Source: Terriglobia bacterium (GTDB taxonomy: Bacteria > Acidobacteriota > Terriglobia > Terriglobales > Acidobacteriaceae). From it: a stretch of DNA of 64,000 nucleotides. A program made the position numbers and the translations under genes. A model generated the notes under the pieces. It was not told where the DNA came from and did no database searches. It was given only the letters and a program-made list of their open reading frames with translations. Shown in pieces: positions 9,126 to 17,421 of this stretch (positions are counted from its first letter, which is position 1; every line of letters starts with the position of its first letter). Where the stretch lies: positions 1 through 64,000 of the forward strand of contig JAIQFF010000002.1 in the NCBI GenBank assembly GCA_020073395.1, given 5' to 3'.

Positions 9126-9668
9126 TATTGATCTAGATGCGCTGCCCGGAGATTTTGTTACAACCCAAGTTTAGCAGGAGCAGCCAGGGAGCGTGCAGGG
9201 CAGAGATGAGAAGCCGACCCACTGTGCCGTGTGACGGGGCCGAGAATGAACCCGTCGGTAGACGTTGGGCGCCCGCCGAGACCCTTTAGGCATCTCCGCA
9301 TGGCGGAGCGTTGCACACCGGATCCTAGTTCGAGTCGAGCTCCCGTTCATTCAGCATTGGTTCAAAAATCGGTGACCCGTCATCACCAACCTGGCAGGTC
9401 GGCTTTCAGTCAGGATGCTAGGGTAAACATCCCGCATTGGCAATAGGGAGAGCGTAAAAAGTTGGCAATCCGCTTGCCAGCAACTTTCGTAAGGGGATAA
9501 CAGACTAGGTGGGGGCAGCCGCCCCGGCTGTCCGGCGGACGGAGCTCCGAACAGAAGCTCTCGGCTGTCAGCTATCGGCTCTCAGCTATAAGCTTCTTAG
9601 CCTTCAGTGCATAAATGTCCGGGTTTCCTGCAGGAATCGACAGCCACACTTGAGTGGGAGCTGAAAGC
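9126..9668. other. Intergenic region holding a 6S-like RNA; no protein gene
   Basis: No credible reading frame lies between lgt and zapA. The centre (9213-9403) forms a long rod of nested stems reported separately. The right part (about 9520-9660) has short facing copies of AGCTCTCGGCTGTCAGC-like sequence with no other recognisable content. Confidence 0.6.
9213..9403 (-). ncRNA. ssrS: Candidate 6S RNA downstream of zapA
   Basis: In many bacteria the 6S RNA, which binds sigma70 RNA polymerase, lies directly downstream of zapA, as here. Four stems nest in one rod. GCCGACC (9213-9219) pairs with GGTCGGC (9397-9403). TGACGGG (9232-9238) pairs with CCCGTCA (9376-9382). GAATGAAC (9244-9251) pairs with GTTCATTC (9345-9352). 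CTCCGC and GCGGAG (9294-9308) form the tip. The asymmetric unpaired stretches and the 191-nt span resemble the roughly 184-nt 6S RNA. The strand is inferred from zapA. A different structured RNA is possible. Confidence 0.55.
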
Positions 9669-15787: not shown

Positions 15788-15874
15788 TGCCGTTTCTCCA
15801 GTTGACGGTTCATGAATAAAGGTATGAAGAGCAATGCGCGACAGTCTACTTGATGGTTGTCATGAACAGATGGG

Positions 15875-15889
15875 ATGAGAAGGCCGGTC
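15875..15889 (+). repeat. Left inverted repeat of the IS element
   Basis: ATGAGAAGGCCGGTC lies 69 bp before the transposase start and is the exact reverse complement of 17329-17343. Confidence 0.85.
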
Positions 15890-15958
15890 TCCGGACGGGA
15901 TGCTGTACGCTCCCAAGTTATCGACGTGCTCGAAGCACAGATAAAAAGGAGACCGGCA

Positions 15959-17062
15959 ATGAAGAAGATTAGCACCGAAGCGGCACAGCAAAGCGGAAAA
16001 ATCTCAGAGCAGAAGTTAACCGTCGGACTGGACGTGGGCGATCGCTCGAGCTGGTATTGCGTGCTGGATGAAGCAGGCACGATTGTGCTGGAGCAAAAAC
16101 TGGGCACGACCCCGAAAGCGATGAAGGAAGTGTTCGGAAGCATGCCGCGCAGCCGGATCGCGCTGGAAACGGGAATGCATTCGCCCTGGGTAAGCCGGTT
16201 GTTGAGCAAGTTGGGACACGAAGTGATCGTGGCCCATGCGCGCAAGGTGCGCTTGATCGGAGAGAGCCGAAAGAAGGACGATCGGCTGGATGCGCAGACC
16301 CTGGCGCGGCTGGCCCGGATCGATCCCCAGCTGTTGTCCCCGGTGAAGCATCGCAGCGCGAAGGCACAAGCGGATCTGACGGTGATCCGGGCGCGTGCCG
16401 GACTGGTGCGTGCACGAACGGCGCTGGTGAATACGGCCCGCGGACTGGCCAAGAGCTACGGGGAGCGGCTGCGCGGGTGCAACGTACGCAATATGAATCC
16501 GGAGAAAGCCCAGGAGCTGAGTCCGGAACTGCGAAGCGCACTGGAGCCGTTGCTGGCGGGAATCGAGTCGCTGAGTGAACGCATCCGGGAGTGCAACGAA
16601 GGGATCGAGCGATTGGCGCGGGAAAGCTATCCGCAAGTGGCGCAACTGAAGCAGGTGAAGGGGGTGGGCACATTGATCGCGCTGACCTTGCTGCTGACGC
16701 TGGAAGACGCGCATCGTCTTGGCAAGAGCCGGGACGTGGGCTGCTACTTGGGGCTGCAGCCGGGACGGAGAAACTCGGGCCAGAGCGAGCCGCAGATGCA
16801 CATCAGCAAGGAAGGCGATCCCTATCTGCGAACCCTGCTGGTGCAGGGAGCGCACCACATCCTGGGCCCGTTTGGAGCCGACAGTGACTTGCGGCGCTGG
16901 GGATTGAAGCTGGCCGAGCGCGGCGGCAAGAGCGGGAAGAAACGAGCCATTGTTGCAGTTGCGCGAAAGCTGGCCGTCTTGCTGCATCACCTGTGGGTGA
17001 GCGGAGAGGTCTACGAACCGTTGCGCAACAGCAAACAAAGAGCGATGCCGGCGGCTGCATAA
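15959..17062 (+). CDS. IS110-family transposase (DEDD recombinase)
   Basis: This 367-residue protein has the N-terminal RuvC-like DEDD domain (GLDVGD, ALETGM, KKDDRLDAQTLARL) and a C-terminal Transposase_20 domain with VKGVGTLIALTLLL, YLGLQPGRRNSG and HISKEGDPYLRTLL. The catalytic serine of the family is expected in the GDPYLR/LLVQGAHH region but I cannot fix the residue. AAAAGGAGA stands just before the ATG at 15959. The enzyme should be guided by the RNA of the element. Confidence 0.92.
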   Translation: MKKISTEAAQQSGKISEQKLTVGLDVGDRSSWYCVLDEAGTIVLEQKLGTTPKAMKEVFGSMPRSRIALETGMHSPWVSRLLSKLGHEVIVAHARKVRLIGESRKKDDRLDAQTLARLARIDPQLLSPVKHRSAKAQADLTVIRARAGLVRARTALVNTARGLAKSYGERLRGCNVRNMNPEKAQELSPELRSALEPLLAGIESLSERIRECNEGIERLARESYPQVAQLKQVKGVGTLIALTLLLTLEDAHRLGKSRDVGCYLGLQPGRRNSGQSEPQMHISKEGDPYLRTLLVQGAHHILGPFGADSDLRRWGLKLAERGGKSGKKRAIVAVARKLAVLLHHLWVSGEVYEPLRNSKQRAMPAAA

Positions 17063-17328
17063 AACCAAAACGCTCTGCGAAAGGAAAAGCCAAAGCCTAA
17101 AGCCGAGTTCCGGTGACTGCGTTAAACGCCTGGCCCAGCTTTCATCTTGGAGATGAAACCGAGGTCGATAAACAGGTGGCAGCACCGGCTGAAACGAGAA
17201 CACCCAACTTGCACCGAGCGAAGCAAAGCGCTCATCGAAGAGTGCGGATGGAAGGGTGGCGACAGTGGCGACTCGGCCGGGAAGAAACAGCGTGACCAAC
17301 CAATACCAAAACGAATCCACTTGACTCC
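17063..17328 (+). ncRNA. Putative bridge-RNA region of the IS1111-type element
   Basis: IS110-family transposases are directed by a structured non-coding RNA; in IS1111-type elements it lies in the right end after the gene. This 266-nt stretch has no reading frame and several stems, including TTTCATCT-TGG-AGATGAAA (about 17138-17156) and GAGCG/CGCTC (about 17217-17234). There is also a direct repeat GTGGCGACA/GTGGCGACT near 17260. RNA ends and guide loops cannot be set from one copy. Confidence 0.55.
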
Positions 17329-17343
17329 GACCGGCCTTCTCAT
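17329..17343 (-). repeat. Right inverted repeat of the IS element
   Basis: GACCGGCCTTCTCAT is the exact reverse complement of the left repeat at 15875-15889. Confidence 0.85.
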
Positions 17344-17421
17344 GGAAGGCGTTTACATCAACAACCGTTGTACTCGATGGACTGGTATCGAGTGTCTCTC
17401 TGCTCCCGGTCACTCCCTCAG

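What the first reader, a model, noticed from the sequence alone, without database searches (positions are those of the whole stretch)
15868..17346. Intact IS1111-type element with a probable bridge RNA
A full-length DEDD transposase, a perfect 15-bp subterminal inverted repeat and a 266-nt structured, gene-free right end together suggest an active RNA-guided element. The stem TTTCATCT/AGATGAAA is a good anchor for folding.
Basis: partly seen in the sequence, partly recalled or inferred. Interest (0 to 1): 0.58.

Follow-up and report, generated by a model that had tools for sequence, protein, structure and literature searches.

The report
IS1111 insertion element with guide RNA
An intact mobile DNA element in an acidobacterial genome carries an RNA whose guide sequence matches the exact site where the element sits; about forty relatives show guide and site changing together, so it is a solid new example of a known RNA-guided jumping gene.

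Summary
15868-17346 is an intact IS1111-group element: a 367-aa DEDD transposase (15959-17062), a perfect 15-bp subterminal inverted repeat and an AG core at both junctions. Its right end carries a structured RNA of about 176 nt (17102-17277). In 41 related elements the RNA's 5' guide matches the element's own right flank from the core onward (mean run 7.0 nt; 4.3 after shuffling flanks; 0 of 20,000 shuffles as high). In 25 elements the 3' guide matches the left flank. For the window element the matches to the rejoined target are 10 nt contiguous and 8 of 9 nt. A donor guide also covaries: 7 of 7 elements with tip ATAGAAG carry GATAGAAG in the RNA. This is a new member of a kind published in 2024 (seekRNA / bridge RNA). 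One addition: the left end is a second structured, covarying RNA, a leader whose outer stem, its 5' arm inside the inverted repeat, covers the transposase ribosome-binding site; the principle is published for ISPpu9. No RNA was measured, no empty site was found, and activity is not shown.

The parts
15868..17346 (+). whole IS1111-group element, 1479 bp, with AG core as its first two bases
   Evidence: ends recur in relatives while flanks differ; own-genome copies share the left end
15875..15889 (+). left subterminal inverted repeat ATGAGAAGGCCGGTC
   Evidence: perfect 15-bp match to 17329-17343
15883..15957 (+). structured leader of the transposase mRNA: GCCGGUCUCC 15883-15892 pairs with GGAGACCGGC 15948-15957, covering the ribosome-binding site; two inner hairpins
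   Evidence: MFE -36.5, z -4.47; covariation on 46 left ends
15959..17062 (+). DEDD transposase, 367 aa, IS1111-type motif GLQPGRRNSG
   Evidence: Pfam and NCBIfam hits
17102..17277 (+). predicted bridge RNA / seekRNA, about 176 nt, closed by GCCGAG/CUCGGC
   Evidence: conserved structure on 45 sequences
17123..17131 (+). T guide UAAACGCCU, complementary to the top strand of the right target flank AGGCGTTTA
   Evidence: 9 nt perfect; covaries across 41 elements
   Evidence: hairpin in 41 of 42 segments
17168..17176 (+). B guide AUAAACAGG, like the top strand of the left target flank plus core (ATGAACAGG, 8 of 9)
   Evidence: positions -4 and -5 covary with left flanks in 25 elements
17203..17210 (+). 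tentative second donor guide CCCAACUU, 7 of 8 complementary to the left tip AAGATGGG of the circle
   Evidence: weak: by eye, among the elements with tip AGATGAG whose RNA was read only L077 shows the matching change
17248..17254 (+). donor guide AUGGAAG, equal to the right tip plus core
   Evidence: 7 of 7 ATAGAAG tips have GATAGAAG in the RNA
17322..17327 (+). TTGACT, predicted -35 of a promoter completed at the circle junction (-10 GAAGAT across the joined ends)
   Evidence: TTGAC at this place in 53 of 59 right-end matches; not tested
17329..17343 (+). right subterminal inverted repeat GACCGGCCTTCTCAT
17347..17348 (+). AG core, target-side copy
   Evidence: AG follows the right tip in the relatives listed

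Best explanation
This is an intact IS1111-group element that moves by RNA-guided recombination. The ends join in an excised circle, which completes a promoter (-35 in the right end, -10 across the junction). The transcript gives transposase and, from the right end, a bridge RNA / seekRNA of about 176 nt. In its first half two guides flanking a hairpin read both strands of the target around the AG core (the window's own target is ATGAAC-AG-GCGTTTAC). In its second half a donor loop reads the element's own tip. The DEDD transposase then recombines circle and target at AG. Shown here: anatomy, ends, conserved RNA structure, guide-target and guide-donor covariation. Inferred from relatives: circle, junction promoter, transcription, strand exchange. 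A second structured RNA, the leader in the left end, probably hides the ribosome-binding site and keeps transposase scarce; this is shown as structure and covariation only.
For: T guide against own right flank: mean run 7.02 nt against 4.30 permuted, 0 of 20,000, n = 41; B guide 3.92 of 5 against 3.03, 0 of 20,000, n = 25. 17 of 34 alignable guides match all nine positions; 424 of 482 pairs with different guides favour own over swapped flanks, 46 ties, 12 losses. Donor guide: 7 of 7 ATAGAAG tips with GATAGAAG. RNA structure: 92.2% of cells paired, 6 pairs changed on both sides. RNA in the right end and T guide 5' of B guide, as published for IS1111.
Against: No RNA data. No empty site found in 100 genomes. 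14 of the 41 T matches run under 7 nt; L025, L057, L083 and L028 score only 2 or 3 (by eye L057 has a shifted 9-nt match and L028 a doubled right end). The T match of the window could also have been kept by chance descent. Folding energy of the window RNA alone is unremarkable (z -1.25). The second donor guide is not supported by covariation.
Confidence: 0.92

Rival explanations
1. The guide matches are an accident of common descent: each lineage has a fixed target and RNA, and the match does not direct insertion.
For: The elements are related, so permutation tests overstate independence; many share the same target type.
Against: 14 guide types among 34 elements track their own flanks, down to single bases such as L070 and L082 GTTAG, L081 CATAG, L029 TTTC and L023 over 12 nt; own beats swapped in 424 of 482 pairs with different guides. 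Related ISEc11 needs the right-end RNA for circle formation and transposition (PMC11187229).
Confidence: 0.04
2. Degenerate, immobile remnant: intact by chance, no longer moving.
For: No near-identical second copy in the assembly; the next is 86% over half its length. The B guide has one mismatch.
Against: Open reading frame, perfect repeat, perfect 9-nt T match and intact RNA helices all persist.
Confidence: 0.3
3. The left-end dyad is a DNA binding site for the transposase rather than an RNA leader.
For: Its 5' arm lies in the inverted repeat, and the second arm resembles the right-end repeat.
Against: Two inner hairpins covary apart from the repeat, and slid controls fall from 87.9% to at most 47.2% of cells paired. 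The second arm overlaps the ribosome-binding site (by construction of the alignment a GGAG is present). In the GGTCGATC group the leader arms pair further than the two end repeats do (by eye).
Confidence: 0.2

Closest known systems
IS1111-family elements ISEc11, ISPa11 and ISKpn4 with seekRNA (Siddiquee 2024, PMC11187229; abstract, parts 1 and 2 of Results and the section on many targets read)
   Same: DEDD transposase with GL-P----SG motif, subterminal repeats, right-end RNA, T guide 5' of B guide, promoter at the circle junction (predicted here)
   Different: Other host phylum, other target; here a covarying donor guide and leader are added
IS621 and the IS110/IS1111 bridge RNA (Durrant 2024, PMC11208160; passages read)
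   Same: Bipartite RNA with target and donor loops, dinucleotide core
   Different: IS621 is of the IS110 group, RNA in the left end, CT core; protein similarity here only E about 0.001
ISPpu9 (Gomez-Garcia 2021, PMC8450116; abstract and passages read)
   Same: 5' leader that folds over the ribosome-binding site; downstream small RNA; AG repeat at the insertion site
   Different: There an antisense RNA opens the leader; no antisense RNA was looked for here
IS5075 (locus L108)
   Same: Subterminal repeat whose left copy can pair with the stretch before the start codon
   Different: Only 28.5% transposase identity; the stem is not significant in my scoring (p 0.31)

Membership tests
IS1111 group | DEDD transposase of the IS110 superfamily | tested here: met
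   PF01548, PF02371, NF033542 over cut-off
IS1111 group | GL-P----S(t)G motif in the C-terminal part | tested here: met
   GLQPGRRNSG in the translation; motif as given
IS1111 group | subterminal inverted repeats of 7-17 bp, 7 bp extension at the left | tested here: met
   15 bp perfect, 7 bp from the left end; range, extension
IS1111 group | longer noncoding region downstream of tnp | tested here: met
   284 nt right, 91 nt left
bridge RNA / seekRNA system | conserved RNA structure in the noncoding end | tested here: met
bridge RNA / seekRNA system | guides for both strands of the target, T before B in IS1111 | tested here: met
   order
bridge RNA / seekRNA system | donor-binding loop with two guides | tested here: inconclusive
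   one guide covaries, the other does not
bridge RNA / seekRNA system | RNA bound by transposase and needed for transposition | not testable with these tools
   needs an experiment
known Rfam family | match at the gathering threshold in the element | tested here: not met
   only a 6S RNA elsewhere in the window

The most novel reading that the evidence does not exclude
In this and other IS1111-group elements the subterminal repeat has a second job in RNA. The left copy is the 5' arm of a leader stem that hides the ribosome-binding site, so element ends, circle-junction promoter and translation control are tied together. The right copy could compete for the same arm in a full-length transcript and so release translation.
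Probability: 0.35. Interest if true: 0.45.

Novelty: new member of a known kind. Interest (0 to 1): 0.33.

Why it matters
It adds about forty natural guide-target pairs, nearly all from Acidobacteriota assemblies, with 14 guide types among 34 alignable elements. That is useful for learning the pairing rules of IS1111 bridge RNAs, including one donor guide supported by covariation. The covarying leader suggests that folding over the ribosome-binding site, shown experimentally for ISPpu9, may be common in the superfamily: 12 of 32 IS110-family genes scored had such a stem at p < 0.05, where 1.6 are expected by chance.

Tried and rejected
Palindromic target: the window's target looked like a hairpin, but 22 rejoined targets show no excess folding (mean z -0.07, 1 of 22 below -2) and own half-sites are no more symmetric than mixed ones. 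Rejected.

Empty site: the rejoined window flanks gave no uninterrupted match in 100 genomes, the window's own included. A short degenerate target pattern hit the own genome three times against two control hits. Uninformative.

Bridge RNA acting on the leader: predicted duplex -49.9 against -53.1 (sd 4.5) for shuffled RNA. Rejected.

Start at ATG 15875 (395-aa ORF): left-end lengths in relatives differ by non-multiples of three, so ATG 15959 is used.

Second donor guide CCCAACUU: kept only as tentative.

Selection to note. 63 right-end RNA hits were reduced by removing identical starts; 48 with both anchors were aligned and 8 were left out. 45 were kept for structure; L037, L038 and L044 were dropped because their first helix misaligned. 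Left ends: 45 passed a filter requiring a GGAG before the start, 7 were skipped, and L036, one of those skipped, was added by hand. The filter selects for a ribosome-binding site, not for pairing. One search scored 32 genes: 25 of the 30 loci, six plasmid loci and the window; its shuffles keep base composition only. One search timed out; the hairpin count used a faulty pattern and was redone. Donor counts leave out rows that are off-register pattern hits, judged by eye.

Full report
What is there. Window 15868-17346 holds one complete element. Left to right: AG core within a 7-bp tip; 15-bp repeat 15875-15889; a left end of 91 nt in all; a 367-aa transposase from ATG 15959 to the stop at 17060-17062; a noncoding right end; the matching repeat 17329-17343; a 3-bp tip; and a second AG at 17347-17348. 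The protein hits both Pfam halves of the IS110-type transposase and NCBIfam's 'IS110 family RNA-guided transposase', and carries GLQPGRRNSG, the IS1111 form of the SG motif described in PMC11187229. Its resemblance to solved IS621 and ISCro4 transposases is weak by sequence (E about 0.001).

Relatives. The assembly has another element at 78% DNA identity (L002), a half copy at 86% cut by a contig end (L003), a left end at a contig end (L004) and a 74-bp left-end remnant (L005). One scan of named bacterial and archaeal genomes gave 68 loci, nearly all in Acidobacteriota assemblies. Of 100 genomes searched, the window's own and 99 relatives, 24 had matches; some of these are the same assemblies as the named ones, and identical sequences were counted once. 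The ends AGATGGGATGAG... and ...TTCTCATGGA|AG recur while the outer flanks differ, which fixes the boundaries and the AG core.

Guides. Between GACUG and CCUGG the RNA holds the reverse complement of the right flank. Window: UAAACGCCU against AGGCGTTTA. L002: CUAUCGCCU against AGGCGATAG. L023: 12 nt. Over 41 elements with RNA and right flank, the own contiguous match from the core averages 7.02 nt against 4.30 for permuted flanks, with none of 20,000 permutations as high; 27 of 41 run at least 7 nt. Over 34 with alignable 9-nt guides there are 14 guide types; 17 of 34 match all nine positions and 23 at least eight. The second guide, just before CAG in AGGUCGAUAAACAGG, matches positions -1 to -5 of the left flank (3.92 of 5 against 3.03, 25 elements, none of 20,000), mainly through positions -4 and -5. 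Against its rejoined target the window element has 10 contiguous nt for T (CAGGCGTTTA) and 8 of 9 for B. Relatedness inflates these permutations, but 424 of 482 pairs with different guides favour own over swapped flanks, with 46 ties and 12 losses.

Donor loop. In the second half, GAUGGAAG repeats the right-end tip plus core. Seven elements (L026, L037, L038, L039, L041, L042, L089) have ATAGAAG at the tip and all seven have GATAGAAG in the RNA; 41 have G in both. L034 and L040 also keep G with another base in front, and L074 has tip ACGGAAG against GATGGAAG. I read the other rows of that tally as off-register pattern hits. The partner guide on the 5' side is only tentative.

Structure. On 45 right-end sequences the named helices keep 92.2% of cells paired, against at most 51.6% when slid. 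6 of 30 pairs show changes on both sides (1 of 500 shuffles as many) and 17 cells do (0 of 500). The best covarying pair is 17111-17187 in the stem closing the target loop: C-G in 36, A-U in 6, G-C in 3. The stem closing the donor loop is the weakest, with one pair broken in 26 of 45. Energy alone is not impressive for the window sequence (z -1.25).

Leader. The left end folds at -36.5 kcal/mol (z -4.47): GCCGGUCUCC 15883-15892 pairs with GGAGACCGGC 15948-15957, which includes the ribosome-binding site one base before the start codon. On 46 left ends 44 keep at least 8 of the 10 outer pairs. 87.9% of cells are paired, against at most 47.2% slid, and 16 of 26 pairs have both-side changes (0 of 500 shuffles); one inner helix is only 58.1% paired. 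L040 and L083 lack the outer stem. In IS5075 (L108) the left repeat can also pair with the stretch before the start codon, but in my scoring that stem is not significant (p 0.31). Such stems are significant at p < 0.05 in 12 of the 32 genes scored. The principle was demonstrated for ISPpu9, where weakening the structure raised expression 26-fold (PMC8450116, passages), so I count it as a variant, not a discovery.

Mechanism and limits. The junction would put TTGACT 18 bp from GAAGAT, which spans the joined ends. TTGAC sits at this place in 53 of 59 right-end matches; by eye several of the six misses are not true ends. A junction promoter is known for ISEc11. Circle formation, transcription and strand exchange are inferred from published relatives.

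Literature. Searches for IS1111 with bridge RNA and with seekRNA return the 2024 papers that define this kind. A search requiring two of the terms IS110 family, bridge RNA and Acidobacter returned 8 papers, none containing the last term. IS1111 with ribosome binding site, transposase and hairpin returned none; IS110 with ribosome binding site, stem-loop and transposase gene returned two, one being ISPpu9. The library holds open-licence papers only.

Verdict. A well-supported new member of a known kind, with unusually clear natural covariation of guide, target and donor, plus a covarying leader worth a simple reporter test.

Noticed in passing
window 15883-15957: Covarying leader RNA over the transposase ribosome-binding site; its 5' arm lies partly in the inverted repeat.
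   Followed up: yes
L002 2919-3180: The second full copy in the same genome carries about 200 extra bases with a long imperfect palindrome between the RNA and the right end.
   Followed up: no
L087, minus strand: A 383-bp derivative with both ends and most of the transposase and RNA deleted; could be moved only by a partner element.
   Followed up: partly
L005 1501-1574; L150: Left-end remnants without a right end nearby, 74 bp identical to the window in L005.
   Followed up: no
window 9212-9403, minus strand: 6S RNA, Rfam RF00013, 53.3 bits.
   Followed up: no
own genome G000: 13 places match the IS110-family transposase model, so the genome is rich in this superfamily.
   Followed up: no
L010 and L030 right flanks: Flanks read AGGCGAGGCG and AGGGCCATT, as if the core region had been repeated or had gained a base at the junction.
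   Followed up: no
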